Source of the DNA: Manis javanica
Taxonomy: Eukaryota > Chordata > Mammalia > Pholidota > Manidae
NCBI RefSeq assembly: GCF_040802235.1
Contig: NC_133174.1
Coordinates: 131,307,213-131,371,212, forward strand
DNA: 64,000 bases
Direction of reading: 5' to 3'
In this document: positions 12,634-56,492 of the stretch, piece by piece
Numbering within the stretch: the stretch's first letter is position 1
Layout of the letters: each line of letters opens with the position of its first letter
The notes under the pieces: model-generated
Databases searched by the model: none
What the model saw: only the letters and a program-made list of their open reading frames with translations
Told to the model about the DNA's origin: nothing
Program-made: the position numbers and the translations under genes

Positions 12634-13409
12634 GATGGAGCCAAGATGGCAGCATGAGTAGGACAGTGGGAATCTCCTCCGAAAAACATATAAATTTTTG
12701 AAAATACAACAAATACAACTAATCCTAAAAGAGAGACCAGAAGACACAGGACAACAGCCAGACTACATCCACACGTGCAAGAGCCCAGCACCTGGTGAAA
12801 GGGGTAAGATACAAGCCCCGGCCGGCGGGACCCCAGCACACCTCCCCCCAGATCCCGGAGGGAGGGAGAGGGAGCCCAGGACTGCTAAACACCCAGCCCG
12901 AGCCACCCGCACGAGAGAGCAGACACACTGCATGCATGGAGGGCTGGAATCTAGGGAAACAGGGCAGCAAGACCTCTGAGCGGGTCCCGAAGCTGATGCC
13001 CCTGTGACAAAGAAAAGTGAGTGCTTTTTGAAAGTCTTAATGGGAAAGGGACACAACAGCTGGACAGAAACAACCCAGGTCACAGTCCAGCAGCTGGAAA
13101 TTCCAGGAAAACCCAAGTCCACTAACCCCCTGGGCAACAGCTCTGAGACCCCTCATGGAGGTAAACAGCCAAACAACCCCCCATCCATTACCCCTCTGGG
13201 GCACGGCCATAGCAGAGAAGCAGCCTGAGACTGGCCACACCCTAAGCAAGGGAGCTTCCTCCATACCGGCCGGGCAACACACAAAGACCCAGTCTACACG
13301 CAATTGCCCAACACAAGCCACTAGGGGTCGCAGTTGTCCCAGTAAAGACAGGCCAGTAGCAAGTGTAAACTTTGGCTCTCCCAGCTGACAGTCAATAGCA
13401 CATATCAAC
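12634..13409 (+). promoter_or_regulatory. L1 5' UTR / internal promoter region of copy A
   Basis: GC-richer than its flanks. It begins with CCAAGATGGCAGC; AAGATGGC at 12,643-12,650 is a perfect reverse YY1-type site, as used at the 5' end of human L1. It holds a single unit of the GTGCTTTTTGAAAGTCTTAA motif around 13,021-13,042 that is amplified as a tandem array in copy B. The antisense strand carries outward-reading frames of 91 and 81 codons. Confidence 0.7.
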
Positions 13410-14259
13410 ATAAAAAGGCAAAAAAAATTGATCCAGACAAGACTAACCCAGACAGCTTCAGCATCTGCAACATCTTCCCCTGAGAAGGAACCTGGAGAGA
13501 TAGATTTAACCAGTCTTTCTGAAAAAGAATTCAAAACAAAAGTCATAACCATGCTGATGGACTTGCAGAGAAATATGCAAGAACTTAGGAAGGAGAATAC
13601 AGAAATAAAAGCAGCTCTGGAAGGACTTCAAAACAGAATGGACGAGATGCAAGAGACTGTTAATGGACTAGAAATCAGAGAACAGGAATGCAGAGAAGCT
13701 GATGCAAAGAGAGATAAAAGGATCTCCAGGAATGAAAGAATTCTTAGAGAGCTGAGTGACCAATCGAAACAGAACAATATCCACATAATAGGGGTACCAG
13801 AAGAAGAAGAGAGAGAAAAAGGGATAGAAAGTGTCTTTGAAGAAATAATGGCTGAAAACTTCCCCAAACTAGGGGAGGAAATGGCCTCTCAGACCACAGA
13901 AGTACACAGAACTCCCATGACAAGGGATCCAAGGAGGGCAACACCAAGACACATAATAATTAAAATGGCAAAGATCAAAGACAAGGACAAAGTATTAAAG
14001 GCAGCCAGAGAGAAAAAAAAGGTCACCTACAAAGGAAAACCCATCAGGCTATCATCAGACTTCTCAACAGAAATCCTAGAGCCCAGAAGATATACTTAAT
14101 GCAATGAAGCAGAAGGGCCTCGAACCAAGACTACTGTATCCAGAACGATTATCATTTAAATATGAAGGAGGGGTTAAACAATTCCCAGACAAGCAAAAGT
14201 TGAGGGAATTTGCCTCCCACAAATCACCACTACAGGGCATCTTACAGGGACTGCTCTAG
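13410..14259 (+). pseudogene. L1 ORF1 of copy A, disrupted
   Basis: L1 ORF1p is the RNA-binding, trimer-forming chaperone of the L1 particle. A long heptad-rich coiled coil (about 13,500-13,760) is followed by the RRM region (IIGVPEEEEREKG) and the C-terminal domain (PRRATPRHIIIKMAK, KGKPIRLSSDFS). Two lesions are visible. The start codon used in copies B and C reads ATA here. An 11-bp deletion near 14,088, relative to copy B, ends the frame at 14,099. The C-terminal residues continue in another frame to TAG at 14,257-14,259. Confidence 0.85.
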
Positions 14260-14454
14260 ATGGGAGCACTCCTAAAAGGAGCACAGAACAAAACACCCAA
14301 CATATGAAGAATGGAGGAGGAGGAATAAGAAGGGAGAGAAATAAAGAATCATCAGACCGTGTTTAAAATAGCTCAACAAGTGAGTTAAGTTAGACAGTAA
14401 GATAGTAAAGAAGGTAACCTTGAACCTTTGGTAACCACAAACTTAAAACCTGCA

Positions 14455-17400
14455 ACGGCAATAAGTACATACCTTTCAATAATCACCCTAAATGTAAATG
14501 GACTGAATGCACCAATCAAAAGAAACAGAGTAATAGAATGGATAAAAAAGCAAGATCCATCCATATTCTACTTACAAGAGACACACCTCAAACCCAAAGA
14601 CATGCACAGACTTAAAGTCAAGGGATGGAAACAGATATTTCATGCAAACAACAGAGAGAAAAAAGCTGGTGTTGCAATACTAGTATCAGACAAAACAGAC
14701 TTCAAAATAAAGAAAGTAACAAAACATAAAGAAGGACATTACATAATGATAAAGGGCTCAGTCCAACAAGAGGATATAACCATTATAAATATATATGCAC
14801 CCAATACAGGAGCACCAACATATCTGAAACAAATACTAACAGGACTAAAGGAGGAAATAGCATGCAATGCATTCATTCTGGGAGACTTCAACACACCACT
14901 CACTCCAAAGGACAGATCCACCAGACAGAAAATAAGTAAGGACACAGAGGCACTGAACAGATGGACCTAATAGACATCTACAGAACTCTACACCCAAAAG
15001 CAACAGGATACACATTCTTCTCAAGTGTACATGGAACATTCTCCAGAAGAGACCACATACTAGGCCACAAAAAGAGCCTCAGTAAATTCCAAAAGATTGA
15101 AATCCTACCAATCAACTTTTCAGACCACAAAAGCATAAAACTAGAAATAAAATGTACAAAGAAAGCAAAAAGGTTCACCAACACATGGAGGCTTAACAAC
15201 AAGCTCCTAAATAATGAATGGATCAATGACCAAATCAAAATGGAGATCCAGCAATATATGGAAACAAACGACAACAACAACACAAAGCCCCAACTACTGT
15301 GGGATACAGCAAAAGCAGTCTTAAGAGGAAAGTATATAGCAATCCAGGCATATTTAAAGAAGGAAGAACAATCCCAAATGAATGGTCTAATGTCACAATT
15401 ATCGAAATTGGAAAAAGAAGAACAAATGAGGCCTAAGGTCATCAGAAAGAGGGACATAATAAAGATCAGAGAAGAAATAAATAAAATTGAGAAGAATAAA
15501 ACAATAGCTAAAATCAATGAAACCAAGAGGTGGTTCTTCGAGAAAATAAACAACATAGATAAGCCTCTAGCCAGACTTATTAAAAGAAAAAGGGAGTCAA
15601 CGCAAATCAACAGAATCAGAAATGAGAAAGGAAAAATCACGATGGACCCCACAGAAATACAAAGAATTTTTAGAGAGTACTATGAAAACCTATATGCTAA
15701 CAAGCTGGGAAATCTAGGAGAAATGGACAGCTTCCTAGAAAAATACAACCTTCCAAGACTGACCAAGAAAGAAACAGAAAATCTAAGCAGACCAGTTACC
15801 AGCAACAAAATTGAAGCGGTAATCAAAAAACTACCAAAAAACAAAACCCCCAGGCCAGATGGATTTACCTCGGAATTTTATCAGACATACAGGGAAGACA
15901 TAATACCCATTCTTCTTAAAGTTTTCCAAAAAATAGAAGAGGAGGGAATACTCCCAAACTCATTCTATGAAGCCAACATCAGCCTAATACCAAAACCAGG
16001 CAAAGACCCCACCAAAAAAGAAAACTACAGACCAATATACCTGATGAACATAGATGCAAAAATACTCAACAAAATATAAGCAACCCGAATTGAAAAATAC
16101 ATCAAAAGGATCGTACACCATGACCAAGTGGGATTCATCCCAGGGATGCAAGGATGGTATAACATTTGAAAATCCATCAACATCATCCACCACAACAAAA
16201 AGAAAGACAAAACCACATGATCATCTCCATAGAAGCTGAAAAAGCATTTGACAAAATTCAACATCCATTCATGATAAAAACTCTCAGCAAAATGGGAATA
16301 GAGGGACAGTACCTCAACATAATAAAGGCTATATATCATAAACCCACAGCCAACTTTACACTGAACAGCGAGAAGCTGAACCCTTTTCCTCTGAGATCGG
16401 GAACTAAACAGGGATGCCCACTCTCCCCACTGTTATTTAACATAGTACTGGAGGTCATAGCCATGGCAATCAGACAAAACAAAGAAATACAAGGAATTCA
16501 GATTGGTAAAGAAGAAGTTAAACTGTCACTATTTGCAGATGACATGACATGATATTTTACATAAAAAACCCTAAAGACTCCACTCCAAAACTACTACAAC
16601 TGATATCGGAATACAGCAAAGTTGAAGAATACAAAATTAACACACAGAACTCTGTGGCTTTCCTATACACTAACAATGAACCAATAGAAAGAGAAATCAG
16701 GAAAACAACTACATTCACAATTGCATCAAAAAGAATAAAATACCTAGCAATAAACCTAACCAAAGAAGTGAAAGACCTATACTCTGAAAACTACAAGTCA
16801 CTCTTAAGAGAAATTAAAGGGGATACTATCAAATGGAAACTCATCCCATGCTCGTGGCTAGGAAGAATTAATATCATCAAAATGGCCATCCTGCCCAAAG
16901 CAATATACAGATTTGATGCAATCCCTATCAAATTACCCGCAACATTCTTCAACAAACTGGAAGAAATTGTTCAAAAATTCATATGGAAACACCAAAGACC
17001 CCGAATAGCCAAAGCGATCCTGAGAAAGAAGAATAAAGAGGTGGGGATCTCACTCTCCAACTTCAAGCTCTACTACAAAGCCATAGTAATCAAGACAATT
17101 TGGTACTGGCACAAAAACACAGCCACAGACCAGTGGAACTGAATAGAGACTCCAGATATCAACCCAATCATATATAGTCAATTAATATTCGATAAAGGAG
17201 CCATGGACATACAATGGCGAAATGACAGTCTCTTCAAGAGATGGTGCTGGCAAAACTGGACAGCTACATGTAGGAGAATGAAACTGGACCATTGTCTAAC
17301 CCCATATACAAAAGTAAATTCAAAATGGATCAAAGACCTGAATGTATTCATGATACCATTAAACTTTTGGAAAAAAACATAGGCAAAAACCTCTTAGACA

Positions 17401-18265
17401 TAAACATGAGTGACCTCTTCTTGAGCATATCTCACCGGTCAAAGAAAACAACAGCAAAAATGAACAAGTGGGACTATGTTAAGCTGAAAAGCTTCTGTAC
17501 AGCAAAAGACACCATCAATAGAACAAAAAGGTACCCTACAGTACGGGAGAATATATTTGTAAATGACAGATCCGATAAAGGCTTGACGTCCAAAATATAT
17601 AAAGAGCTCACACACCTCAACAAACAAAAAACAAATAATCCAATTAAAAAATGGGCAGAGGAACTGAACAGACAGTTCTCCAAAAAGAAATACAGATGGC
17701 CAACAGACACATGAGAAGATGCTCCACATCGCTAATTATCAGAGAAATGCAAATTAAAACTACAAGGAGGTATCACCTCACACCAGTAAGGATGGCTACC
17801 ATCCAAAAGACAAACAACAACAAATATTGGCGAGGCTTTGGAGAAAGGGGAACCCTCCTACACTGCTGGTGCGAATGTATATTAGTTCAACCATTGTGGA
17901 AAGCAGTATGGAGGTTCCTCAACATGCTCAAAACAGACTTACCATTTGACCCAGGAATTCCACTTCTAGGAATTTACTCTAAGAATGCAGCAATCAACTT
18001 TGAAAAAGACAGATCCACCCCTATGTTTATCGCAGCAGTATTTTCAATAGCCAGGAATTGGAAGCAACCTAAATGTCCATCGGTAGATGAATGGATAAAG
18101 AAGATGTGGTATATATTCACAATGGAATATTACTCAGCAATAAGAAGAGGGAAAATCCTACCATTTGCAGCAACATGGATGGAGCTGGCAGGTATTATGC
18201 TCAGTGAAATAAGCCAAGCGGGGAAAGAGAAATACCAAATGCTTTCACACATCTGTGGAGTATAA
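14455..18265 (+). pseudogene. L1 ORF2 of copy A, disrupted
   Basis: ORF2p is the L1 endonuclease and reverse transcriptase. The endonuclease opens with LNVNGLNAPI and includes the ILGDFNTPL run. The RT region includes [16 protein letters not shown] and the FADD active site near 16,538. The C-terminal cysteine motif lies near 17,820-17,880. Lesions: a 13-bp deletion near 14,958 (between GAAC repeats) shifts the frame; a stop lies at 16,077-16,079; a GACAT duplication immediately after FADD shifts the frame at about 16,549; more stops lie near 16,168 and 17,142. The start codon position reads ACG where the other copies have ATG. Confidence 0.9.
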
Positions 18266-18593
18266 GAACAAAGGAAAAACTGAAGGAACAAAACAGCAGT
18301 GGAATCACAGAACCCAAGAATGGACTAACAGGTACCAAAGGGAAAGGGACTGGGGAGGATGGGTCGGTAGGGAGGGATAAGGGAGTGAAGTAGAAGGGGG
18401 GTATTAAGATTAGCATGCATAAAGGGGGGTGAGAGAAAGGGGAGGGCTGTACAGCACAGAAAGGACAAGTGGTGATTCTGCGGCATTTTGCTATGCTTAT
18501 GTATGGTGACTGTAGGGGTGTTTGTGGGGGGAACCTGGTATAGGGGAGAGCCTAGTAGACATAGTATTCTTCATGTATGTGTAGATTAATGAT
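18266..18593 (+). other. L1 3' UTR of copy A, G-rich
   Basis: Ordinary L1 3' UTR: G-rich stretch 18,335-18,450 with several runs of three or more Gs, then the conserved terminal part ending in TAGATTAATGATAA. Copy D ends at the corresponding point (ATCGATGATACC plus A-rich tail), so this is the original L1 3' end. Confidence 0.8.
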
Positions 18594-18623
18594 AACCAAA
18601 AAGAAAAACAGAAAGAAAGAAAA
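18594..18623 (+). repeat. Internal A-rich tract at the L1/ERV junction, copy A
   Basis: Interrupted A/GAAA tract between the canonical L1 3' end and retroviral sequence. It matches tracts at the same place in B (49,139-49,180) and C (58,295-58,316). Best read as the fossil poly(A) tail of the founding L1. Confidence 0.75.
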
Positions 18624-20094
18624 GGGGGATTACTCCCTGATAGGATAAAAGTAACTGTAAATCAATGATTAATTCATGCTTTAAATATCCTTAATTTTGA
18701 TCACTTAAAGGGTGTCAGATGATTGGCTATGGAGGTACATTTTTCTGATAATATTCCTTTCTCTTAAAAAAAAAAAAGCAGTTCCTGTGTGCTGACCTCC
18801 AATGAGTTCTACACAATGGTATAAAGGGCATATCAAAGTGTGGGCAAAGGGTCTGTTTGTGTTTATACTGAGGATCAAAGCCTAATTGGGCTACCCAGAA
18901 AATGAACTAAGATACGATATGAAGAAGAACGTCCAACATCAGCACTCTCTGGAAGAGTCTTACCAGAAGATGATCACCAAAAAACCTCAACAAAGATCCT
19001 GGTGCTGTTGCAGTTGTAGCTGCATTCATTCCACTGGTTCCTGGACTTGCCATGGGAATGAAGAAGGATATATCTAAGCTGGCCTGTACATACAGTAAAA
19101 CAACAAATTTGACTGGATCTATACTGTTGGAACTCAACCAAGAATTAGGAGAAGTGCAAGTTGTAGCACTCCAAAATCTTAGAACTACAGACTATCTACT
19201 GTTAAAAGAACATATGGGATGTGAACAGTTCCCAGGAACGGGTTGTTTTAATTTGTCTGATTTCTCTCAGACTGTTCAAGTTCAGTTGGACAATATCCAT
19301 CATGTCATAGATAAACTTTCACAAATGCCTAGGGTGCCTAACTGGTTTTCCTTTTTTCACTGGAGATGGCTGGTAATTATAGGTCTGCTTTGGTTATGTA
19401 ACTGTATTCATTTTATGTTAATGTATGTGCACAATTTAATTAGTAGTTTAAAACCTGTACATGCTTAAGTTACTCTACAAGAAGATATGTCAAAGAAATA
19501 ATCAATCTTCCCATGTTTTCTTCCATCTGCTACTTCTATAGCTTTTCTTCTTCCTTCCTAATTACAACCCTTAAATAGAATTCGTGCCTCATATCGAATT
19601 TACCGAGTATCATAAATCTTCCAAGTGGTAAAGATACCTCAAGACAAATGCTGGGCATAGAAGCCACAGGGCATAAATCTGCAAAGAAGTAAAAAGCTAA
19701 CCTTTTCAAACAATATTGCTTCTCTCTCACTTACCAACTTTACATTTCCCTGTATGGCCCCGGAAGATGGCTGGTTAGCCAGAGACGGGTAAGATTCCTC
19801 AAGGGAGGAACAACTTAAGACAGGCACAGTTGCAGGGGGACCATCAGGTGGGAAATTGGGGATCAACAGAGGTGAGGCTTAGAACCTCACCCCCCCTGAT
19901 TTGAGAGAAATCTTCTGCATCTGTAGATGTTTTATTGCCCTTGTCTAGCTTGGATTAACACGTAGTCTACAGGCACACACCTGATCATCTACATTTGCTC
20001 TCTTACAACACTGAACTATGTTTTCTACCTTTATCTTGCATCTACCTACCACTTCAGCATTTTATTAAAAATAATAATAATAATAAGGGAGAAA
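18624..20094 (+). pseudogene. Endogenous retrovirus env 3' remnant and env-LTR spacer in copy A
   Basis: About 1.5 kb of retroviral 3' sequence. Positions 18,779-19,050 hold broken frames of the end of the surface subunit and a hydrophobic stretch. Positions 19,052-19,468 keep 138 codons of the transmembrane subunit: heptad region, a degenerate CX6CC motif (only one cysteine of the final pair remains), and a membrane-spanning segment near the C-terminus. From 19,469 to 20,084 is non-coding spacer. The purine tract AAGGGAGAA at 20,085-20,093 precedes the LTR. CX6CC identifies a gamma-type env; the family is not named. Defective. Confidence 0.75.
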
Positions 20095-20418
20095 TGTGGG
20101 ATTCACATATAAATCAAGTATAAAAATCAAACGAATATTCATATTTGACCTGATTGTTTATAGTTCATAATGTGTGATCAAAACCAAAAGTTTCTGTGAT
20201 GACTGCCCTTGTACTGTTCACCTTGTAAGAACTTATTCACTATGTAAGAATTTGTTCACCATGTAAGAACTTGTTTGTTATGCTTCAGAAGATTGGAGAC
20301 TGATGAGAATTAGGCTTGGCGTGGATTACTGATTGTACATTGAGCATTGAGTCCCCTATACAGAATTTTATTGTTGTTAACAACCATTTGATCAATAAAT
20401 ATGAGAGATGCCCTCTCA
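20095..20418 (+). repeat. Truncated retroviral LTR (U3-R) ending copy A
   Basis: Starts TGTGGGATTCAC directly after the purine tract and ends ATGCCCTCTCA. AATAAA lies at 20,394-20,399, about 19 nt before the A tail. A full LTR should continue into U5 past the poly(A) site; here the tail begins at the R end, as in a retroviral mRNA. Length 324 bp, the same as in copy B. Confidence 0.8.
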
Positions 20419-20443
20419 AAAAAAAAAGAAAGAAAAGAAAAAA
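20394..20443 (+). terminator. LTR poly(A) signal and A-rich tail of copy A
   Basis: The LTR AATAAA and the A/GAAA tail form the true 3' end of the chimeric transcript. Confidence 0.85.
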
Positions 20444-26335: not shown

Positions 26336-27195
26336 CATGGAAATCACTAGAAATATGAGATGGCAAAAAAATTTGTACAAACAAGAATCTAAGACACCAG
26401 AAAGAGAGCTAAGTGAAACTGAAATCACCAATCTTCTTGATAAATATTTCAAAATAAAAATAATAAACATGCTCATGAAACTACAGAAAAATATTCAAGA
26501 TCTTGGGGAGGAATTCAAGAAAGAGATAGAAACTTTGAAGAATAAAGTATCTGAAATGAAACATACAATGGAGGGATTTAAAAGAAGATTAGATGAGGTA
26601 GAAGAGATGGTAAATGAAATAGAATTAGAGAACAGGAAAACAAAGAAGCTGAGGCACAGAGAGAATAAAGGATCACTAGGAATGAAAGAATAGTAAGAGA
26701 ACTGTGTAACCAATCCAAACAGAACAACATTTGCATTGTAGGGGTACAAGAAGAAGAGAGAGAAAAAGGGATAGAAAGTCTCTTTGAGGAAATAATTGCT
26801 GAAAACTTCCCCAGAAGGAAATAGTTTCTCAGATCATGGAACTGCAGAGATCTCACAATATAAGGGATGCTAGGAAGACAACACCAAGACACATAATAAT
26901 TAAAATGACAAATTTCAAGGACAAGGACAGACTATTAAAAGCAGCCAGAGATAGAAAAAAGATCATGTACAAAGGAAAGCCTATCAGGCTATCATCAGAC
27001 TTCTCAGCAGAAACCTTACAAGCCAGAAGGGAGAGGCATGATATAGTCAGTGCGATGAAACAGAAGGGCCTCCAACCAAGAATACTCCGGCTGGTAAGAT
27101 TATCATTTAAATTTGAAGTAGGGATTAAACGATTTCCAGATAAGCCAAAGTTGAGGGATTTACCTCCCACAAACTGTCTCTGCAGTGTATTTTAA
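26336..27195 (+). pseudogene. L1 ORF1 of copy D, disrupted
   Basis: The coiled-coil half (about 26,340-26,690) ends at a stop at 26,691-26,693 after frame drift. The C-terminal domain resumes in another frame at 26,836-27,195, with TTPRHIIIKMTNFKDKDRLL and KGKPIRLSSDFSAE. Non-functional. Confidence 0.85.
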
Positions 27196-27516
27196 AGGGA
27201 CTGCTCTAGATGGAAGTGCTCCTAAAGCTAAATAGCTGTCACCAGAGAAAATGAAACCACAGTAAAGAAATTAGACCAATTAATTACTAAGCAAATGCAA
27301 AATTAAATCAACTATCCACAAAGTCAGTCAAGGGATACACAAAGAGTACAGAATATGATACCATATAAAGAGTGGAGGAGAAAGAAAAAGAAGGAAGAAA
27401 AAAATCCTTTTCGATTGTGTGTTTAATGTAGCATAATAAGCGAGTTGAGTTAGACTGTTAGATAGTAAAAGGAAGTTTCCCTTGAACCTTTGGTAACCTT
27501 GAATCTAAAGCCTGCA

Positions 27517-30500
27517 ATGGCCATAAGTACATACCTATTGATAATAACCCTAAATGTAAATGGACTGAATGCACCAATCAAAAGACATAAACTTACAGAA
27601 TGGATAGAAAAACAAGGCTCATCTATATGCTGCCTATTAGAGACTCACTTCAAACCCAAAGACATATACAGACTGAAAATGAAGTGATGGAAAATGATAT
27701 TTCATGCAAATAATAGGGAGAAAAAGCAGGGTAGCAGTTCTTATATCAGACAAAATAGATTTCAAAAAAAAAGAAAGTAACAAGAGACAAAGGACATTAC
27801 ATAATGATAAAGGGGTCAGTCCAACAAGAGGATATAACCATTATAAATATCTATGCACCCAATATAGGGGCACCTAAATATGTGAGACAAATACTAACAG
27901 AATTAAAGGGGGAAAAAGAATACAATGCATTTCTTTTAGGATACTTCAACACACCACTCACTCTAAAGAAAAGATCAACCAGACAGAAAATAAGTAAGAA
28001 CACCGAGGTACTGAGCAACACACTACAACAGATGGACCTAACAGACATCTACAGAACTCTACACCCAAAAATGTGGGGTGGGGCACAGGGAGGGTTGTAC
28101 AACACAGAGAAGACAGGTGGTGATTATACAGCATCTTGCTATGCTGATGGACAGTGACTGCCGTGGGGTGTGGGGGGGGACTTAGTGAGGGGGTGAGCCC
28201 GGTAAGCATAGTGATCTTCATGTAATTGTAGATTAATGATGGCAAACAATCAAACAAAACAAATAAATAAATAAAACAGCAGTTTACACATTCTTCTCAA
28301 GTGCACATGGAATGTTTTCCAGAATAGATCACATACTAGGCCACAAAAAGAGCCTCAGTAAATTCAAAAAGATTGAAATTCTACCAAACAACTTCTCAGA
28401 TTACAAAGGTATAAAACTAGAAATAAATTGTACAAAGAAAACAAAAAGGCTCACAAACACATGGAGGCTTAACAACATTCTCCTAAATAACCAATAGATC
28501 AATGACCAAATAAAAAATATAAATCAATATATGGAGATAAATGAAAAGAACAACTTAACAGCCCAAAATCTGTGGGATACAGCAAAGGCAGTTCTAAGAG
28601 TAAAGTATATTGCAATATAAGCTTGCCTCAAGAAAAAAGAACAATTCCAAATGAACAGTCTAAACTCACAATTAATGAAACTAGAAAAAGAAGAACTAAT
28701 GAGGCCCAAAGTTGATAGAAGGGGGGACATAATAAGGATCAAGGCAGAAATAAATACAATTGACAAGAATAAAACAATAGAAAGATTCAATGAAACCAGG
28801 AGCTGGTTCTTGGAGAAAACAAAATAGACAAACCCCTAGCCAAACTGATCAAGAAAGAGAGGGTATGCACATAAACAGAATCAGAAAGGAGAGGAAAAAT
28901 CACTATAGTCACCACAGAAATACAAAGAATTATTAGATAATACTATGAAAAATAATATGCTAACAAACTGGAAACCTAGAAGAAATGGACAACTTTCTAG
29001 AAAAATACAACCTTCCAGGGCTGACCCAGGAATAAACAGAAAATCTGAACAGACCAATTAGTAGCAATGAAATTGAACTGGTAATCAAAAAACTACCCAA
29101 GAACAAAACCCCTGGGTCAGATGCTTCATGATTGAAATTTATCAAACATTTAAAGACCTAATAGCCATCCTTCTTAAAGTTTTCCAAAATGTAGAAGAGG
29201 AGGGAATGCTTCCAAACTCACTCTATGAAGCCAGCATCACTCTAATACTGAATCTGGACAAAGACACCATAAAAAAGGAAAATTACAGACAAGTATCCGT
29301 GATGAATATAGATGCAAAAATACTCAACAAAATATTAGCAAACCGAATTCAAAAATACATCAAAAGTATCATACACCATGACCAAGGTGGATTCATCTCA
29401 GGGATGCAAGGATGGTACAATATTCAAAAATCCATCAACATTATCCACTATATCAATAAAAAGGACAAAAATCACACGATCATCTCCATAGATGCTGAAA
29501 AGGCATTAGACAAAATTCAACACCCATTCATGATAAAAACTCTCAAAAAAATGGGAATAGAGGGCAAGTACCTCAACATAATAAAGGCCATATATGACAA
29601 ACCCACAGCCAACATCATAGTTAACATTGAGAAGCTGACAGCTTTTCCTCTAAGACTGGGAACAAGGCAAGGATGCCCATGCTCACCACTTTTATTCAAC
29701 ATAGTACTGGAGGTCCTACCCACAGCAATCAGAAAATGCAAAGAAATAAAAAAGCATCCAGATTGGTAAGGAAGAAGTTAAACTGTCCCTGTTTTCAGAT
29801 GACATGATATTGTCCATAAAAAACCCTAAAGAACCCACAAAAAACTAGAATTAATAACTGAATTCAGCAAAGTTCTAGAATACAAAATTAATACACAAAA
29901 ATCTGTTGCAATCTTATATATTAATGATGAACTAGCAGAATGAGAAATCAGGAAAACAACTCCATTTACAACTGCATCAAAAAAAAATACCTAGGAATAA
30001 ACCTGTCCAAGGAGGTGAAAGACTTATACCCTGAAAACTACAAGACACTCATGTGAGAAATTAAAGAAGACACTAATAATAGAAATACATCAAGTGGTCA
30101 TGGATAGGAAGAATTAATATTGTCAAAATGGCCATCCTGCCTAAAGTGATTTACAGATTCAATGCAATCCCTATCAAAATACCAACAGCATTCTTCAATG
30201 AACCAGAACAAATAGTTGTAAATTCACATGGAATCACAAAAGACCCCAAATAGCCAAAGAAATACTGAGAAGGAAGAACAAAGATGGGGGATTACACTCC
30301 CCAATTTCAAGCTCTACTACAAAGCAACAGTAAATAAAACAATTTGGTACAACACAAGAACAGGCCCATAGATCAATGGAACAGAATAGAGAGCCCAGAT
30401 ATAAACCCACACATATATGGCTAATTAATATATGATAAAAGAGCCATGGATATACATGGGGAAATGACAGCCTCTTCAACAACTGATGTTGACAATACTG

Positions 30501-31501
30501 GACAACGATATGTAAGAGAATCAAACTGGGTTGTTGTCTAACTCCATACACAAAAGTAAACTCAAAATGGAACAAAGTCCTGAATGTAAGTCATGAAACC
30601 TTAAAACTCTTAGAAGAAAACACAGGCAAATACCTCTTGAGTATAAACATGAAAAAATTTTTCCTGAACACATCTCCTTGGGCAAGGAAAACAAAATAAA
30701 AATTGAACAAATGGGACTACATAAAACTAAAAGGCTCCTGTACAGCAAAGGACATGATCAGCAGAATATAAAGCATCCTACAGTATAGAGAATATATTCA
30801 TAAATTACATATCCAACAAGGGGTTAACATTGAAAATATGTAAAGAACTCACATGCCTCAACACCCAGAAAGCAAATAACCCAATTAAAAAATGGGCAGA
30901 GGATCTGAACAGACACTTCTCCAAAGAAGAAATTCAGATGGCCAACAGGCTCATGAAAAGATGCTCCACATCACTAATCATCAGGGAAATACAAATTAAA
31001 ACCACAATGAGATATCACCTCACACAAGTTAGGATGGCTAACATCCAAAAGACAAGCAACAACAAATGCTGGCGAGGATACATAGAAAGGGGAACCCTCC
31101 TACACTGTTGGTTGCAATGTAACTTGGTTCAGCCCTTGTGGCAAGCAATATGGAGGTTCCTCAAAAAACTAAAAATAGAAATACCATTTTGACCTAGTAA
31201 CTCCTGTCACAGGAATTTACCCAAAGAAAACAAGATCCCTGTTTCACAAAACATATGCATCCCTGTGCTTATCACAGCACTATTTACAATAGCCAAGAAA
31301 TGGAAACAACCTTAGTGTCCATCAGTAGATGAATGGATAAAGAGGTGGTATATATACACAATGGAATATTATTCAGCCATAAGAAAACAAATCCTACTAT
31401 TTGCAATAACATGGATGGAGCTAGAGGTTGTTACACTCAGTGAACTAAGCCAGGCAGAAAAAGACAAGTACCAAATGATTTCACTCATTTGTGGAGTATA
31501 A
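27517..31501 (+). pseudogene. L1 ORF2 of copy D, disrupted
   Basis: Start ATG at 27,517; LNVNGLNAPIKRHK opens the endonuclease; the stop in register is TAA at 31,499-31,501. Many frameshifts and stops. The frame is also split by the nested insertion at 28,071. RT segments are readable at 29,128-29,769 ([32 protein letters not shown]) and the C-terminal cysteine region at 31,060-31,130. Confidence 0.88.
28071..28276 (+). mobile_element. Nested 5'-truncated L1 3' end inside copy D ORF2
   Basis: About 205 bp of L1 3' UTR (TGTGGGGTGGGGCACAGGG to GTAGATTAATGATGG), then an A-rich tail (CAAACAAAACAAATAAATAA), sitting between ORF2 codons that are adjacent in copies A and B (ACACCCAAAA | CAGCAG..ACATTCTTCTC). 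It ends at the ordinary L1 end without the retroviral tail. Duplication probably only a few As. Confidence 0.85.
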
Positions 31502-31841
31502 TGACAAAGCAAAGCTGAAGGAACAAAACAGCAGCAGACTCACAGACTCCAAGAAGGCACTAGTGATTACCAAAGGGGAAGGGTTTGGAAGGGTGGGAGG
31601 GGAGGGAGGGAGAAGGGGATTAAGGGGCATTATAATTAGCACACACAATATAGGTAGGACACAGGGAAAGCAGCACAGCATGGAGAAGACAAGTAATGAC
31701 TCTGTAGCATCTTACTACACTGATGGACAGTGACTGCAATGGGGATGGGGGGACTTGATAATATGGGTGAATGTTGAAACCAGAATAATGCTCATGTGAA
31801 ACCTTCATAAGCTTGTATATCGATGATACCTTAATAGAAAT
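31502..31841 (+). other. L1 3' UTR of copy D with G-rich tract
   Basis: 31,574-31,618 carries at least six runs of three or four Gs separated by 1-5 nt, a strong G-quadruplex pattern, as known for L1 3' UTRs. The element ends in GATGATACCTTAATAGAAAT before the target duplication. Confidence 0.75.
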
Positions 31842-31861
31842 AAGAATATAATTATAGATAT

Positions 31862-46789: not shown

Positions 46790-47302
46790 TATAACTTTCT
46801 ATTTTGAAATAATTTTAGAATTATAGGAAAGTTGCAAAAATAGTACAGTGTTCCTCCATATACCAGTGCTTCACTATTTCCTCTAATGTTAACATTTTAT
46901 ATAACAATAATACAGTTATCAAAATCAGGAAATTAATATTAGTAAATTGCATTAACTAACCTACAGAGTTAATTTGGATTTCATTTCAACTAGCTTTGCC
47001 CCTAATGTCCTTTTTCTGTTCCGGGATCCACTGCAGGAAGTCACATGTAACTTAATAGACATGTCTCCTTACTCTCCTCCAGTCTGTGACAACTCTTAAG
47101 TCCTCCTTTGTCTTTTTGATCATAACAGTTTAGAAAAGTAATGGTCAGTTGTTTTGTAGAATAGGCTTCAATTTGGGTGTATCTGATGTTTTCCTGTGAT
47201 TAGACTGTGGTGATGGATTTTTAGGAGGAATACTACAGGGGTGAGGTACCCTTCTCAGTTTAACAAATCAAGAGACACATGAGGTAGGAAGATGTTATTT
47301 TT
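46790..47302. repeat. Old interspersed repeat, left part (interrupted by copy B)
   Basis: Plus strand reads TTTTAGAATTATAGGAAAGTTGC, then TCCTCCAGTCTGTGACAACT. It resumes after copy B at 56,007-56,480. Resembles a common old mammalian repeat, probably L1-derived, but the family name is uncertain. Confidence 0.5.
47287..47302. repeat. Target-site duplication of copy B
   Basis: GGAAGATGTTATTTTT here and at 56,007-56,022 are identical (16 bp). On the element's strand the site begins AAAAATAAC, fitting L1 endonuclease cutting at TTTT/A. Confidence 0.92.
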
Positions 47303-47338
47303 TTATTTTTTTTATTTTTTAATTTTTTAATTTTTTTT

Positions 47339-47662
47339 TGAGAGGGCATCTCTCATATTTATTGATCAAATGGTTGTTAACAACAATAAAATTCAGTATA
47401 GGGGGGTCAACGCTCAATGTACAATCATTAATCCATCTCAAGCCTAATTCTCGTCAGTCTCCAATCTTCTGAAGCATAACGAACAAGTTCTTACATGGTG
47501 AACGAATTCTTACGTAGTGAATAAATTCTTACATGGTGAACAGTACAAGGGCATTCATCACAGAAACTTTCAGTTTTGATCATGCATTATGACCTATAAA
47601 CAATCAGGTCAAATATGAATATTCGTTTGATTTTTGTACTTGATTTATATGTTGATCCTACA
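47339..47662 (-). repeat. Truncated retroviral LTR (U3-R) ending copy B
   Basis: In its direction starts TGTAGGATCAACATATAAAT after a purine-rich tract and ends GATGCCCTCTCA, with AATAAA about 19 nt before the poly(A). 324 bp, same limits as in copy A; no U5. Confidence 0.82.
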
Positions 47663-49138
47663 TTTCTCCTATTATTATTATTATTTTTATTTTTAATAAA
47701 ATGCTGAAGTGGTAGGTAGATGCAAGATAAAGGTAGAAAACATAGTTTAGTGCTGTAAGAGGGCAAATGTAGATGATCAGATGATCAGGTGTGTGCCTAC
47801 GGACTAAGTATTAATCCAGGCTAGACAAGGGCAGCAAGACATCCACGGATGCAGAAGATTTCTCTCAAAGCAGGGGGGGTGAGGTTCTGAGCCTCACCTC
47901 TGTTGATCCCCAAATTCTCACCTGATGGACCCACTGCGACTGTGCCTGTCTTAGGTTGTTCCTCCCTTGAGGAATCTTACCCGTCTTTGGCTAACCAGTC
48001 ATCTTCCGGGGCCATACAGGGAAATGTAAAGTTGGTAAATGAGAGAGAAGCCATATTGTTTGCAAAGGTTAGCTTTTTACTTCTTTGCAGATTTATGCCC
48101 TGTGGCTTCTATGCCCAGCACTTGTCTCGAGGTATCTTTACCACCTGGAGGAATTATGATGCTCGGTAAATTCGATATGAGGCACGAATTCTATTTAAGG
48201 TTTGTAATTAGGAAGGAAGAAGAAAAGCTATAGATGTAGCATATGAAGGAAACATGGGAGGATTGATTATTTCTTTGACATATCTTCTTGTAGAGTACCT
48301 TAAGTATGTATAGGTTTTAAACTACTAACTAATTTGCACACACATATTAACATAATAGGAATACGGTAACATAAACAAAGCAAATCTATATTACCATCCA
48401 TCTCCAGTGAAGCCAAGAAAACCATTTAGGCACCCTAGGCATTTGTGAAAATTTATCTATGATATGATGGATATTGTCCAACTGTACTTGAACCATCAGA
48501 CAAATTAAAGCGGCCCATTTCTGGGATCTGTTCACATCCCATATGTTCTTTTAACCATAGATAGTCTATAGTCATGAGATTTTGGAGTGCTACAACTTGC
48601 ACCCCTCCCAACTCCTGGTTGAGTTCCAACAGTACAGATCCGGTCAAATTCGTTGTCTCACTGTATGCACATGCCAGCCTAGACATCTCCCTCCTCATTC
48701 CTGTGGCAAGTCCAGGAGACAGTGGGCTGGATGCAGCCACAACCGCAGCATCGTCCGGATCCCTGTGGAGGCTTTTTGATGATCATCCCCCGGCACGAGT
48801 CCTCCAGAGAGTGCTGATGCCAGAAGCTCCTCCTCATATCGTATCTTAGTTCATTTTCTGGGTATCCAAGCTAGGCCTTGATCTTCTGCATAGAAACAAA
48901 CAGACCCTTTGCCCACACTTTGACATGCCCTCTACACCACTGTGCAGAACTCATTGGAGGTCAGCACACAGTAACTGCTTTTTTTTTTTTTTTAATTAAG
49001 AGAAAGGAATATTATCAGAAAAGAGTACCTCCATAGCTGATCATCTGACACCCTTTAAGTGATCAACATTAAGTATATATAAAGCATTCGTTGATCTTTG
49101 ATTTACCAATAGTTTTATCCTGTCAAGGAGTAATCCCC
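47663..49138 (-). pseudogene. ERV env 3' remnant and spacer in copy B
   Basis: Counterpart of 18,624-20,094. A 95-codon minus frame (48,740-48,453) covers part of the transmembrane subunit. Both cysteines of the terminal pair of CX6CC are substituted, and the membrane-anchor part is out of frame. A 12-18 nt A run (T-rich on the plus strand near 48,979) occurs at the same place as in A and C. Plus-strand frames of 88 and 64 codons (47,903 and 48,039) have counterparts in A and C. Non-functional as env. Confidence 0.72.
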
Positions 49139-49505
49139 CTTTTCTTTCTTTCTTTTTTCTTTTTTTTTTTTTAATTTTTAATCTACACTTACATGAAGAA
49201 TACTATGTTTACTATGCTCTCCCCTATATCAGGTCCCCCCTAACAACCACATTACGGTTACTGTCCATCAGCTTAGCAAAATGTTGTACAGTCACTACTT
49301 GTCTTCTCTGTGTTGTGCTGCCCACCCTCCCCTTTCTCCCTCCCCCCCATGCATGCTAATCTTAATACCCCCCTTTCTTCTTCCCCCCCCTTATCCCTCC
49401 CTGCCCACCCATCCTCCCCAGTATCTTTCCCTTTGGTAACTGTTAGTCCATTTTTGGGTTCTGTAATTCTGCTGCTGTTTTGTTCCTTCAGTTTTTCCTT
49501 TGTTC
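49139..49505 (-). other. L1 3' UTR of copy B and internal A-rich tract
   Basis: The internal tract (T-rich 49,141-49,180 on the plus strand) separates the retroviral part from the L1 end. The G-rich L1 3' UTR appears as C-rich text at 49,320-49,430. Confidence 0.8.
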
Positions 49506-52500
49506 CTATACTCCTCAGATGAGTGAAATCATTTGGTATTTCTCTTTCTCCGCTTGGCTTATTTCACTGAGCATAATACCCTCTAGCTCCATCGATGTTG
49601 CTGCAAATGGTAGGATTTTCCCTCTTCTTTTGGCTGAGTAGTATTCCACTGTGTATATGTACCACATCTTCTTTATCCATTCATCTACCGGTGGACATTT
49701 AGGTTGCTTTCAATTCTTGGCTATTGTAAATAGTGCTGCGATAAACATAGGGGTGCATCTGTCTTTCTCAAACTTGATTGCTGCGTTCTTAGGGTAAATT
49801 TCTAGGAGTGGAATTCCTGGGTCAAATGGTAGGTCTGTTTTGAGCATTTTGAGGAACCTCCATACTGCTTTCCACAATGGTTGAACTAATTTACATTCCC
49901 ACCAGTAGTGTAGGAGGGTTCCCCTTTCTCCACAACCTCGCCAACATTTGTTGTTGTTTGTCTTTTGGATGGCAGCTATCCTTACTGGTGTGAGGTGATA
50001 CCTCATTGTAGTTTTAATTTGCATTTCTCTGATAATTAGCGATGTGGAGCATCTTTTCATGTGTCTCTTGGCCATCTGTATTTCTTTTTTGGAGAACTGT
50101 CTGTTCAGTTCCTCTGCCCATTTTTTAATTGCGTTATTTGTTTTTTGTTTGCTGAGGCGCGTGAGCTCTTTATATATTCTGGACGTCAAGCCTTTATCGG
50201 ATCTGTCATTTTCAAATATATTCTCCCATACTGTAGGGTTCCTTTTTGTTCTATTGATGGTGTTTTTCTCTGTACAGAAGCTTTTCAGCTTAATGTAGTC
50301 CCACTTGCTTATTTTTGCTGTTGTTTTCCTTGCCTGGGGAGATATGTTCAAGAAGAGGTCACTCATGTTTATGCCTAAGAGGCTTTTGCATATGTTTTTT
50401 TCCAAGAGTTTAATGGTTTCATGACTTACATTCAGGTCTTTGATCCATTTTGAGTTTACCTTTGTATATGGGGTTAGACAATGGTCCAGTTTCATTCTCC
50501 TACATGTAGCTGTCCAGTTTTGCCAGCACCATCTGTTGAAGAGACTGTCATTTTGCCATTGTATGTCCATGGCTCCTTTATCAAATATTAATTGACTATA
50601 TATGTTTGGGTTAATTTCTGGGGTCTCTAATCTGTTCCACTGGTCTGTGGCTCTGTTCTTGTGCCAGTACCAAATTGTCTTGATTACTATGGCTTTGTAG
50701 TAGAGCTTGAAGTTGGGGAGTGAGATCCCCCCTACTTCATTCTTCTTTCTCAGGATTGCTTTGGCTATTTGAGGTCTTTGGTGTTTCCATATGAATTTTT
50801 GAACTATTTGTTCCAATTCATTGAAGAATGTTGCTGGTAATTTGAGAGGGATTGCATCAAATCTGTATATTGCTTTGGGCAGGATGGCCATTTTGACGAT
50901 ATTAATTCTTCCTAGCCATGAGCATGGGATGAGTTTCCATTTTTTAGTGTCCCCTTTAATTTCTCTTAAGAGTGACTTGTAGTTTTCAGAGTATAAGTCT
51001 TTCACTTCTTTGGTTAGGTTTATTCCTAGGTATTTTATTCTTTTTGATGCAATGGTGAATGGAATTGTTTTCCTGATTTCTCTTTCTATTGATTCGTTGT
51101 TAGTGTATAGGAAAGCTACAGATTTCTGTGTGTTAATTTTGTATCCTGCAACTCTGCTGTATTCCGATATCAGTTCTAGTAGTTTTGGAGTGGAGTCCTT
51201 AGGGTTTTTTATGTACAGTATCATATCATCTGCAAATAGTGACAGTTTAACTTCTTCTTTACCAATCTGGATTCCTTGTATTTCTTTGTTTTGTCTGATT
51301 GCCGTGGCTAGGACCTCCAGTACTATGTTAAATAACAGTGGGGAGAGTGGGCATCCCTGTCTGGTTCCCGATCTCAGAGGAAATGCTTTCAGCTTCTCGC
51401 TGTTCAGTATAATGCTAGCTGTGGGTTTATCATATATGGCCTTTATTATGTTGAGGTACTTGCCCTCTATTCCCATTTTGCTGAGAGTTTTTATCATGAA
51501 TGGATGTTGAATTTTGTCAAATGCTTTTTCAGCATCTATGGAGATGATCATGTGGTTTTTGTCTTTCTTTTTGTTGATGTGGTGGATGATGTTGATGGAT
51601 TTTCGAATGTTGTACCATCCTTGCATCCCTGGGATGAACACCACTTGGTCATGGTGTATGATCCTTTTGATATACTGTTGAATTCTGTTTGCTAATATTT
51701 TATTGAGTATTTTTGCATCTACATTCATCAGGGATATTGGTCTGTAATTTTCTTTTTTGGTGGGGTCTTTGCCTGGTTTTGGTATTTGGGTGATGTTGGC
51801 CTCATAGAATGAGTTTGGGAGTATTCCCTCTTCTTCTATTTTATGGAACACTTTAAGGAGAATGGGTATTATGTCTTCTTTGTGTGTCTGATAAAATTCC
51901 GAGGTAAATCCATCCGGCCCCGGGGTTTTGTTCTTGGGTAGTTTTTTGATTAGTGTTTGAATTTCTTTGCTCGTAATTGGTTTGTTTAACTTTTGTGTTT
52001 CTTCCTTGGTCAGTCTTGGGAGGTTGTATTTTTCTAGGAAGTTGTCCATTTCTTCTAGGTTTTTCAGCGTGTTGGCATATAGGTTTTCATAGTAGTCTTT
52101 AATAATTCTTTGTATTTCTGTGGAGTCTGTCATGATTTTTCCATTCTCATTTCTGATTATGTTGATTTGTGTTGACTCTCTTTTTCTCTTAATAAGTTGG
52201 GCTAGAGGCTTATCTATTTTGTTTATTTTCTTGAAGAACCAGCTCTTGGTTTCGTTGATTTTTGCTATTGTTTTATTCTTCTCAATTTTGTTTATTTCTT
52301 CTCTGATCTTTATTATGTCCCTCCTTCTGCTGACTTTAGGCCTCATTTGTTCTTCTTTTTCCAGTTTCAATAATTGTGATGTTAGACTATTCATTTGGGA
52401 TTGTTCTTCCTTCTTCAAGTGTGCCTGGATTGCTATATACTTTCCTCTTAAGACTGCTTTCGCTGCATCCCACAGAAGTTGGGGCTTAGTGTTGTTGTTG

Positions 52501-53330
52501 TCATTTGTTTCTATATATTCCTTGATCTCTATTTTGATTTGTTCATTGATCCATTGATTATTTAGTAGCATGTTGTTAAGCCTCGATGTGTTTGTGAGCC
52601 TTTTTGTTTTCTTTGTAGAATTTATTTCTACTTTCATACCTTTGTGGTCTGAAAAATTGGTTGGTAGAATTTCAATATATTGGAATTTACTGTGGCTCTT
52701 TTTGTGAGCTAGTATGTGGTCTCTTCTGGAGAATGTTCCATGTGCACTTGAGAAGAATGTATATCCTGTTGCTTTTGGATGTAGAGTTCTATAGATGTCT
52801 ATTAGGTCCATCTGTTCTAGTGTGTTGTTCAGTGCCTGTGTGTCTTTACTTATTTTCTGCTCGGTGGATCTATCCTTTAGGGTGAGTGGTGTGTTGAAGT
52901 CTCCTACAATGAATGCATTGCAGTCTATTTCCCTCTTTAGTTCTGTTAGTATTTGCTTCACATATGCTGGTGCTCCTGTATTGGGTGCATATATATTTAG
53001 AATGGTTATATCCTCTTGTTGGACTGAGCCCTTTATCATTATTTAGTATCCTTCTTTATCTCTTGTTACTTTATTTGTTTTGAAGTCTATTTTGTCTGAT
53101 ATTAGTACTGCAACCCCTGCTTTCTTCTCACTGTTGTTTGCCTGAAATATGTTTTTCCATCCCTTGACTTTTAGTCTATGCTTATCTTTGGGTTTAAGGT
53201 GAGTTTCTTGTAAGCAGCATATAGATGGGTCTTGCTTTTTTATCCATTCTATTACTCTATGTCTTTTGATTGGTGCCTTAAGTCCATTTACATTTAGGGT
53301 GACTTTTGAGGGATATGTACTTATTGCCAT
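49506..53330 (-). pseudogene. L1 ORF2 of copy B, nearly intact
   Basis: Endonuclease-reverse transcriptase of L1. From the ATG at 53,330 to the in-register TAG at 49,506-49,508 there are 1,275 codons, the usual ORF2 size, with no frameshift that I can see. Only three premature stops interrupt it: at 53,043-53,045 (Tyr in copy A), at 49,710-49,712 (Trp in A) and at 49,515-49,517 (Cys in A and C). The central open part is 1,109 codons. Visible: [10 protein letters not shown] in the endonuclease, LIPKPG-type RT segment ([19 protein letters not shown]), FADD active site at 51,225-51,236, and a C-X3-C-X7-H-X4-C motif near 49,893-49,955. Probably inactive in cis. Confidence 0.92.
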
Positions 53331-53525
53331 TGCAGGCTTTAGATTCGTGGTTACCAAAGGTTCAAGGTTAGCTTCTTTAGTATCTTACTGCCTAACTTAG
53401 CTCGCTTATTGAGCTGTTATATACACTGTCTGGAGATTCTTTTCTTCTCTCCCTTCTTATTCCTCCTCCTCCATTCTTCATATGTTGTGTGTTTTGTTCT
53501 GTGCTCTTTTTAGGAGTGCTCCCAT

Positions 53526-56006: not shown

Positions 56007-56480
56007 GGAAGATGTTATTTTTGTTGATGTCTACCTTGATCACTTAGTTAAGGTGGTGCCTGTGGACTTCTCCATTATAAAGTTAGAGTTATTTCCTTTG
56101 CAATTAATAAATATTTCGGGAGTGATGCTTTGAGACTATGCAAATATCCTGTTTCTCCTCAAAGTTTTGCTCACTAACTTTAGCATCCATTGGTGGATCT
56201 TGCTTGCAACAATTACTAGTTAGTATTCTAATGGTGATTTTCTATTTTCCTCATTCTTTCCACATTTGTTAATGGGAATTCTTCAGTAAGAAAAGACCAT
56301 CCCTTCTGTATTGATTTATTCAATTATTTATATATCTCAGTATGGACTCTTTATGGGCCCACATTCTATTCTATAGGCTTCATCCAGTACTATAATTACT
56401 TATTTTATTGTTTAAATTATTCCTGCTTTACCTTATAATAACTCTCTCAGGTTGATGTCTCTACCCCTTCAATGAGCCTT
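56007..56480. repeat. Old interspersed repeat, right part, between copies B and C
   Basis: Starts with the right-hand target duplication of copy B (56,007-56,022) and resumes the repeat broken at 47,302 (CTTGATCACTTAGTTAAGGTGG, GACTATGCAAATATCCTGTT). It is cut again at about 56,481 by copy C. Confidence 0.55.
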
Positions 56481-56492
56481 CTTTTTTTTTTT

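What the first reader, a model, noticed from the sequence alone, without database searches (positions are those of the whole stretch)
12634..20443. An L1 lineage that ends in a captured retroviral env-LTR 3' end
Copies A (12,634-20,443), B (47,303-56,006) and C (56,481-64,000) all carry the same ~1.8 kb of retroviral sequence after the ordinary L1 3' UTR, with the same junction, order and end. Copy D, an older L1, ends at the normal L1 3' end. Three copies in 64 kb with one junction point to a single founding fusion that then multiplied, giving an L1 whose 3' end is retroviral. Single 3' transductions are well known; a fixed retroviral tail in a successful lineage is, as far as I know, unusual.
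Basis: partly seen in the sequence, partly recalled or inferred. Interest (0 to 1): 0.9.

Follow-up and report, generated by a model that had tools for sequence, protein, structure and literature searches.

The report
Pangolin L1s wearing a retroviral tail
In what appears to be the Malayan pangolin, a common jumping gene (LINE-1) picked up the back end of an ancient retrovirus, uses the virus's own RNA stop signal as its new 3' end, and has left thousands of copies, most of them of a type with a patch of A-to-G changes that looks like RNA editing.

Summary
Copies A, B and C are L1s whose 3' UTR runs into one 1.8 kb retroviral tail with one junction and one end; in B and C target duplications enclose the whole composite. 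The genome matches the Malayan pangolin assembly. Genome-wide the 26-bp tail end occurs 19,308 times (up to one mismatch); sampled copies end there with poly(A), start at varying points and often carry 9-18 bp duplications: L1 retrotransposition with the tail as 3' end. The parent is a multi-copy class II ERV in the same genome. The tail holds its pol end and env, lacks about 0.9 kb of surface domain, and stops at the LTR's R/U5 poly(A) site, while true LTRs run on about 115 bp: the capture went through RNA. Unasked result: the tails split into two types by a cluster of A-to-G changes within 338 bp, derived when judged by ERVs, with ADAR-like neighbours; the G-type is commoner (7,287 against 2,452 exact motifs, 144 mixed). 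Closest known: L1 3' transduction and SVA's SINE-R end. Not established: read-through or template switch, when the surface domain was lost, current activity, other species, a Dfam/RepBase entry.

The parts
12634..18616 (+). Copy A: L1 body (5' UTR, ORF1 region, ORF2 region, L1 3' UTR)
   Evidence: self-match; ORF1 piece matches Pfam Transposase_22 5.6e-26; sequence
18617..20418 (+). Copy A: captured retroviral tail (exact start hidden in the A-rich junction 18598-18623)
   Evidence: collinear with ERV locus L072 apart from the missing env surface domain
18616..18899 (+). Tail part 1: end of the ERV pol frame, read as the integrase end (by position and recalled motif; Pfam found no family)
   Evidence: A 18616-18993 = L072 2144-2517, 80%; L072 stop-to-stop frame 1999-2424; no Pfam family for it
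18993..18995 (+). Point where about 0.9 kb of the env surface domain is missing relative to ERV L072 and 15 others
   Evidence: L072 2518-3423 absent; alignments of both edges
18974..19468 (+). Tail part 2: env transmembrane (TM) region, 164-codon stop-to-stop frame in copy A as it stands
   Evidence: PDB avian retrovirus TM E 2e-8
18816..19153 (+). Stretch in which the G-type subfamily has a cluster of A-to-G changes (copy A carries the A state)
48602..48940 (-). The same stretch in copy B, which is G-type
19469..20094 (+). Tail part 3: ERV region between env and LTR, ending in a purine tract
20095..20418 (+). Tail part 4: LTR U3-R from its TG to the poly(A) site; AATAAA at 20394-20399; U5 absent
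   Evidence: three LTRs run on about 115 bp; solo LTR L069 TGTGGG...CCAACA with 5-bp duplication GAGGG
20419..20443 (+). Copy A: poly(A)-derived A-rich tail
49140..56005 (-). Copy B: L1 body, with 208-bp 5' UTR monomers at 54973-55752
   Evidence: 1109-aa ORF2 piece with RVT_1 7.2e-46
47339..49139 (-). Copy B: retroviral tail
56007..56024 (.). Copy B: 5' target duplication
47287..47304 (.). Copy B: 3' target duplication, 17 of 18 identical
58295..64000 (-). Copy C: L1 body, cut by the window end (5' end at 64293)
56493..58294 (-). Copy C: retroviral tail (A-type)
56470..56483 (.). Copy C: 3' target duplication (5' partner outside the window), 13 of 14 identical
26427..31850 (+). Copy D: older, tail-less L1 (comparison)
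28072..28272 (+). Tail-less, 5'-truncated L1 3' end related to that of A, B and C, inside D; its A-rich end lies where the tail starts in A, B and C
   Evidence: 75-79% to A, B, C

Best explanation
One L1 in the ancestry of this genome became joined, at the end of its 3' UTR, to the 3' part of a class II (alpha/beta-like) endogenous retrovirus. Shown: the composite is copied by L1 retrotransposition as one unit, and its RNA ends at the viral LTR's own polyadenylation site, so the retroviral R end plus poly(A) replaced the L1 3' end as the place where L1 copying starts. Shown in the copies sampled: one junction and one end, so most simply one founding event. Inferred (about 60:30 against template switching): the founder was an L1 inserted in sense at the A-rich end of a provirus's pol gene; transcription read through the L1's own end to the 3' LTR poly(A) site and the product was retrotransposed (a 3' transduction). 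Open: whether the env surface domain was lost before or after the capture. Inferred, about 65%: later one copy's RNA was edited A-to-I over about 340 nt, copied back, and founded the G-type subfamily, now the larger.
For: Copy number: 19,308 matches (up to 1 mismatch) to the 26-bp end, reversed control 0; 9,883 exact matches to a 22-bp motif about 1.5 kb upstream. One 3' end: 29 of 30 loci (copy A among them) end there with an A-rich run (L038 does not), 29 of 30 loci likewise (L054 does not). L1 machinery: varying 5' truncation points; of 29 inserts examined 16 gave a repeat of 9 bp or more by the script's rule, 14 of them flush with the insert (9-18 bp, mostly A-rich at the start; L019 after allowing for 15 over-aligned bases); no chance control was run. 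B and C duplications. Parent: L072 holds RVT_thumb 1.2e-32, RVT_1 7.5e-21 and RNase H 7e-13, env and an LTR with U5; a query from its surface domain, absent from the tail, found 379 candidates, 40 scored at 81-100% (L072 itself the 100%). R/U5 end: with exact matching only 3 genome places have the LTR end followed by non-A sequence, and all 3 continue into one U5. L1 target at the junction: most ERVs aligned read like CATTATTTGTTAAAACAAAAAGGGGG, bottom strand TTTT/AA; consensus in PMC5974252 (passages). Editing: of 76 fixed differences 41 have A in A-type and G in G-type, 6 the reverse. With 16 ERVs as outgroup (3-16 readable per A/G site; 71 of the 76 tested, five LTR sites left out) 29 of the 41 are A>G on the G-type branch, 6 lie on the other branch, 6 undecided; other G-type-derived changes: G>A 4, T>C 6, C>T 2, transversions 15. 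5' G depleted (2 of 36 against 24 of 87, p 0.007), 3' G enriched (16 of 36 against 11 of 87, p 0.0002).
Against: The junction is A-rich on both sides, so read-through and template switch leave the same scar; no founder locus was seen. The missing surface domain is no independent proof of one origin: 15 of the 16 ERVs compared were found by querying with that domain, so ERVs without it would not have been seen. No GT stands at the left edge of the gap in the 14 distinct ERV loci aligned there, but L072, L075 and L080, the tail's nearer relatives, have one five bases further in: splicing is neither shown nor excluded. Closest ERV read is only 84.8% like the tail. Copy A has no clear duplication. 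L1 body and tail favour different trees (BC|A in ORF1/5' ORF2, AB|C in the tail). Of 13 exact L1 3'-end motifs in C1:0-25.8 Mb only 2 have an exact tail motif within 2.5 kb; 3 more, one duplicated segment, are tailed with a mutated motif: tail-less sister L1s seem common. The search tool scores at most 40 candidates; one genome only. The edited stretch shows no unusual self-folding (z 0.83), so its double-stranded partner is unknown.
Confidence: 0.84

Rival explanations
1. Template switch at integration: L1 reverse transcription began on the poly(A) of an ERV mRNA and jumped to the poly(A) of an L1 mRNA, making the first L1-ERV chimera without any L1 ever sitting in a provirus.
For: The junction is L1 A-tail to an A-rich ERV site (AAAAAGGGGG), good microhomology for a jump; the tail ends at the ERV poly(A) site.
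Against: The same site is an L1 endonuclease consensus (TTTT/AA) on the other strand, expected for read-through and only coincidental here.
Confidence: 0.3
2. The tail multiplied by itself as an ERV-mRNA retropseudogene or SINE-like unit (as SINE-R does within SVA), and the L1-joined copies are a side branch.
For: Most tail copies seem to lack L1 sequence; in C1:0-25.8 Mb there are 100 tail motifs and 13 exact L1 3' ends.
Against: Tail-only copies start at many different points, not at one, as 5' truncation predicts; 20 of the 30 loci (copy A among them) run back into L1 sequence. A 1.8 kb tail makes L1-free fragments the expected majority.
Confidence: 0.1
3. The G-type states are not RNA editing: they built up gradually in one source lineage, or came by conversion from an ERV not sampled.
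For: No surviving intermediate is needed if the source lineage was single; 35 of the 76 fixed differences are of other kinds; the closest ERV read is 15% away, and 15 of the 16 ERVs were chosen by their surface domain.
Against: A>G 29 against G>A 4 on the G-type branch; 34 of 121 A's changed inside 18810-19160 against 5 of 449 outside (whose own figure of 36 counts two sites where copy A has T); at those 29 sites at most 3 of the ERVs carry G; 144 mixed of 9,883.
Confidence: 0.25
4. Segmental duplication or assembly artefact of one nested locus.
For: Three copies in one window; L039-L041 are one duplicated segment.
Against: Different flanks and duplications, copies on 17 contigs in the lists, pairwise differences of 2.3-9.1% among 37 tails.
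Confidence: 0.01

Closest known systems
L1 3' transduction families (human and other mammals)
   Same: L1 RNA passes its own end, takes downstream DNA to the next poly(A) site, and copies it as one unit
   Different: Here the captured end is retroviral, supplies a viral poly(A) site, became fixed and gave thousands of copies (general knowledge of transduction families: recalled)
SVA (SINE-R-VNTR-Alu) of hominids
   Same: 3' end from the 3' end of env and the 3' LTR of an ERV (HERV-K10), A-tail after the retroviral part (PMC12593883, passages); copied by L1 (PMC7353768, abstract start in the listings)
   Different: SVA is a non-coding passenger; here the retroviral end sits on the L1 itself. 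Different ERV, different mammal
Pangolin ERVs (MPERVs) with an L1 inside
   Same: An ERV-Gamma copy of the Chinese pangolin has an L1 between env and 3' LTR (PMC12584738, section 6), the nested arrangement that read-through needs
   Different: A gamma ERV, one locus, no fusion lineage described in what I read; parent here is class II. Whether it equals their ERV-Alpha could not be tested
APOBEC3-edited retroelements
   Same: Clustered same-type changes written into the genome at retrotransposition (PMC2873906, passages)
   Different: Those are G-to-A; here A-to-G, the ADAR direction, in the founder of a large subfamily

Membership tests
LINE-1 (L1) | ORF1 with L1 RNA-binding domain and ORF2 with endonuclease and reverse transcriptase | tested here: met
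   Transposase_22 5.6e-26 (A), RVT_1 7.2e-46 and Exo_endo_phos 2.1e-6 (B)
LINE-1 (L1) | Insertion by target-primed reverse transcription: target duplications, poly(A), 5' truncation | tested here: met
L1 3' transduction | Non-L1 sequence after the L1 3' end, then a second poly(A), inside one pair of duplications | tested here: met
   B and C; A inconclusive
L1 3' transduction | Identified source locus whose downstream flank is the transduced DNA | tested here: inconclusive
   Source family found, source locus not
Endogenous retrovirus as the copying unit | Two LTRs or solo LTR with TG...CA and 4-6 bp duplication | tested here: not met
   Tail has part of one LTR, no U5, ends in poly(A); genuine solo LTR L069 meets it
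Class II ERV (parent of the tail) | Alpha/beta-type pol | tested here: met
   RVT_thumb 1.2e-32 in L072; PMC12584738 lists this domain in its alpha and beta pangolin ERVs. No pol tree built
SVA-like composite | Non-coding, no reverse transcriptase of its own | tested here: not met
   Carries L1 ORFs, though broken in part
ADAR-type RNA editing | Clustered A>G with 5' G disfavoured and 3' G favoured | tested here: met
   preferences in PMC11276115 (passages)
ADAR-type RNA editing | Double-stranded RNA substrate | tested here: inconclusive
   No unusual self-structure; a partner in trans or an inverted neighbour not tested

The most novel reading that the evidence does not exclude
The most successful L1 subfamily with this tail descends from an RNA that the host's ADAR had edited at 26 or more adenosines within 330 nt and that was then copied back into DNA: a hyperedited transcript became a heritable master element and outnumbers its unedited sister about three to one, on top of an L1 whose 3' end and poly(A) signal were taken from a retrovirus.
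Probability: 0.55. Interest if true: 0.88.

Novelty: new variant of a known kind. Interest (0 to 1): 0.76.

Why it matters
If true, an L1 3' end was replaced by a retroviral RNA end and the lineage flourished, so the 3' end of an L1 can be exchanged much as its 5' promoter can (the latter recalled). Because the tail is 1.8 kb and L1 copies are mostly 5'-truncated, many L1 insertions here consist of retroviral sequence alone and could be annotated as ERVs (inference), distorting LTR counts in pangolins (11.14% LTR and 35.41% LINE reported for this species; PMC11825179). The A-to-G subfamily, if confirmed, would be a clear natural case of RNA editing written into a genome and then multiplied, and makes the question of whether editing disables or diversifies retrotransposons testable with thousands of copies.

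Tried and rejected
Tested and dropped or left open: (1) separate ERV insertions into L1s: no ERV-type duplications seen, LTR incomplete. (2) Splicing as the cause of the env gap: the right edge can be read as TTAG|ATCC in some ERVs, no GT at the left edge in 14 distinct loci, but one five bases further in in three of them; left open. (3) APOBEC (G-to-A) as the cause of the A/G split: polarity by 16 ERVs is against it. (4) Self-folding in the edited stretch: nothing unusual. (5) L054 as a solo LTR: it lacks U5 and an evident duplication, unexplained. (6) Rfam and tRNA scans of the window: nothing. (7) Protein search with the TM piece: 36 short proteins on unnamed contigs, none with a given name. 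Literature: full-text searches (for L1/ERV and pangolin; 68, 113 for editing), judged from listings and abstract starts, showed no report of this element or of an edited founder; most subscription papers are not held.
Full report
What is there. The window carries three full-length or near full-length L1 copies, A (12634-20443, +), B (47305-56005, -) and C (56484 to 64293, -; its 5' end lies outside the window), and an older one, D (for the sequence; for C). After the L1 3' UTR all three of A, B and C continue through the same A-rich junction into the same 1.8 kb, which D lacks. The copies differ from one another by 9-11% overall.

Which genome. The window lies in a 2.56 Gb assembly of 63 contigs; contig 1 is 241,980,339 bp and contig 19, which holds the window, 141,798,549 bp. 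The Malayan pangolin assembly of PMC11825179 is given as 2.56 Gb, 62 scaffolds, longest 241.98 Mb, NG50 141.80 Mb (passages). I take the genome to be Manis javanica; contig 19 may be the X (inference).

The tail is a piece of a retrovirus whose relatives are in the genome. The open frame at 18974-19468 matches avian retrovirus TM chains in the PDB (E 2e-8). Asking the genome for the exact LTR end followed by mostly non-A bases gave three places, all continuing into one and the same sequence of about 115 bp; one of them, L069, is a clean solo LTR ending in CCAACA with a 5-bp duplication. That sequence is U5. Another of the three, read as L072, is the rest of an old provirus: reverse transcriptase with thumb domain and RNase H, a further pol stretch that I read as integrase by position and recalled motif (Pfam found no family), env, LTR. 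The tail maps on it in two pieces: A 18616-18993 on the pol end and env start, A 18995-20418 on TM to R; 906 bp of L072, the env surface domain, are missing. A query from that missing part found 379 candidate places, of which 40 were scored and all matched at 81-100% (the 100% is L072 itself). The ERVs so found keep the surface domain by construction, so they cannot tell whether it was lost before or after the capture. Of the 16 ERVs compared (L072 and 15 of that search) the nearest, L080, is 84.8% like copy A's tail over TM to R.

How it is copied. Of 30 loci taken by similarity to A's LTR (copy A among them), 29 end at the same base followed by an A-rich run (L038 does not); of 30 taken by pattern, 29 (L054 does not, and L039-L041 are one duplicated segment). 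Ten of the first 30 start inside the tail or at the A-rich junction, at varying points. Of 29 such inserts 16 show a flanking repeat of at least 9 bp by a fixed rule, 14 of them flush with the insert and mostly A-rich at the start; no chance control was run. B and C have duplications around the L1 plus tail. This is the signature of target-primed reverse transcription of an RNA that ends at the LTR's poly(A) site, 19 nt after AATAAA.

How many. The 26-bp end occurs 19,308 times with up to one mismatch, the reversed control 0. A 22-bp motif 1.5 kb upstream occurs 9,883 times exactly. A 24-bp motif at the L1 3' end occurs 1,150 times exactly. These figures are not comparable one to one (different length, mismatch and subfamily; copy B's own L1 3' end departs from the 24-mer), but they fit an element whose copies are mostly cut short within the tail.

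The founding event. The copies sampled share one junction; hence, most simply, one origin. At the junction most of the ERVs aligned read like CATTATTTGTTAAAACAAAAAGGGGG, which on the other strand is the L1 endonuclease target TTTT/AA (consensus as in PMC5974252, passages). An L1 inserted there in sense, read through to the 3' LTR, gives the observed RNA. A template switch from ERV poly(A) RNA to L1 RNA gives the same product. I prefer read-through, about two to one. That L1s do sit in pangolin proviruses near the 3' end is reported for one gamma ERV (PMC12584738, section 6).

A second, unasked finding. Copy B differs from A and C by 30 A-to-G changes within 18816-19121 (spectrum). One search lists 46 rows (L001 and L009 are both copy A; L039-L041 are one duplicated segment): A-type rows have at most 3 G at these sites, G-type rows 26-28 of 30 with full cover and 21-23 of 23 with partial cover; none lies between. 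One search, with the window copies added and L001/L009 left out, gives 12 G-type and 35 A-type. Genome-wide, at three of the sites in one 22-bp motif, 7,287 copies are all-G, 2,452 all-A and the remaining 144 of 9,883 mixed. Of 76 fixed differences between the types 41 have A in A-type and G in G-type, 6 the reverse. With 16 ERV copies as outgroup (3-16 readable per A/G site), and 71 of the 76 sites tested (five LTR sites left out), 29 of the 41 are A>G on the G-type branch, 6 lie on the A-type branch and 6 cannot be placed; 26 of the 29 fall within 18824-19153. Inside 18810-19160, 34 of 121 A's of copy A are changed against 5 of 449 outside; G is rare before and common after the changed A (contexts read in copy A, and the 36 sites used there include the ones not placed or placed the other way). 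PMC11276115 (passages) gives U and A over C and G as the 5' preference and G as the 3' preference of human ADARs; PMC2873906 (passages) states that ADARs leave A-to-G and APOBEC3s G-to-A clusters. I read this as one editing event in the RNA that founded the G-type. Against: the stretch has no special fold and the double-stranded partner is unknown; gradual change in one source lineage is not excluded.

Age. Mean pairwise difference over 19469-20423 is 5.9% within A-type (25 of the 35; the others lack part of this stretch or are duplicates), 5.0% within G-type (12) and 6.8% between, so copies lie about 2.5-3% from their sources. With a recalled mammalian rate near 2.2e-9 per year that is roughly 11-14 million years, near the split of the two Manis species quoted in PMC12584738 (about 16.4 My). 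This is rough; whether any copy is young could not be tested.

Complications. Tail-less L1s with a related 3' UTR exist: one is inserted in D at 28072-28272, and of 13 exact L1 3' ends in C1:0-25.8 Mb only 2 have an exact tail motif within 2.5 kb; the first 3 of the 13 belong to L039-L041, which have the tail with the motif mutated. In the three window copies, informative sites favour B with C in ORF1 and the first part of ORF2 (67 against 9 and 7 over 13600-16000) but A with B in the tail (16-18 against 2-5 and 2-3 over 19160-20418; 9-10 against 2-3 and 1 over 18620-18985). Three copies are few, but it hints that body and tail have been reassorted.

Comparison and verdict. It works like an L1 3' transduction whose transduced segment became the permanent 3' end, and its end resembles SVA's SINE-R, which is also env plus 3' LTR (PMC12593883, passages), but on an element with its own L1 genes. 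It is an L1 by the features tested and is not an ERV as a copying unit. I found no report in the searches named under Tried and rejected; Dfam and RepBase were not available. The fusion is a new variant of a known kind; the edited founder is the more surprising part.

Noticed in passing
window 8265-10106 (+): Intact 613-codon single-exon ORF with ESCO acetyltransferase and zinc-finger domains (1.2e-27, 4.6e-16): looks like an ESCO2 retrocopy kept open on contig 19, which may be the X.
   Followed up: partly
G000 contig C4, 163.69-166.02 Mb: Eight pattern hits on one strand spaced about 332 kb apart (328-343 kb): looks like a tandem segmental array of a 332-kb unit, at least eight copies.
   Followed up: no
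L016; C1:18746903-18747093: Variant tail lacking about 160 bp between the junction and the internal A-run (A 18609-18765): a deletion between two A-rich tracts. A second, G-type candidate shows the matching short spacing of 169 instead of about 320 bp.
   Followed up: partly
L024, L047: Tails followed by a second partial LTR copy that begins at the same A-run in U3 (A 20122): two cases of tandem or stepwise addition of the end.
   Followed up: partly
L054, about 1208-1530: An LTR piece from near its TG to the R end, without U5, without poly(A) and without an evident duplication, inside an L1.
   Followed up: partly
window 54973-55752 (-): Copy B's 5' UTR has 3.7 GC-rich tandem monomers of 208 bp, not reported for A by the same scan: monomer-type L1 promoter.
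   Followed up: no
window 20215-20275: Three 19-bp tandem units in the captured LTR; related arrays at 47481-47542 and 56622-56691 in B and C.
   Followed up: no
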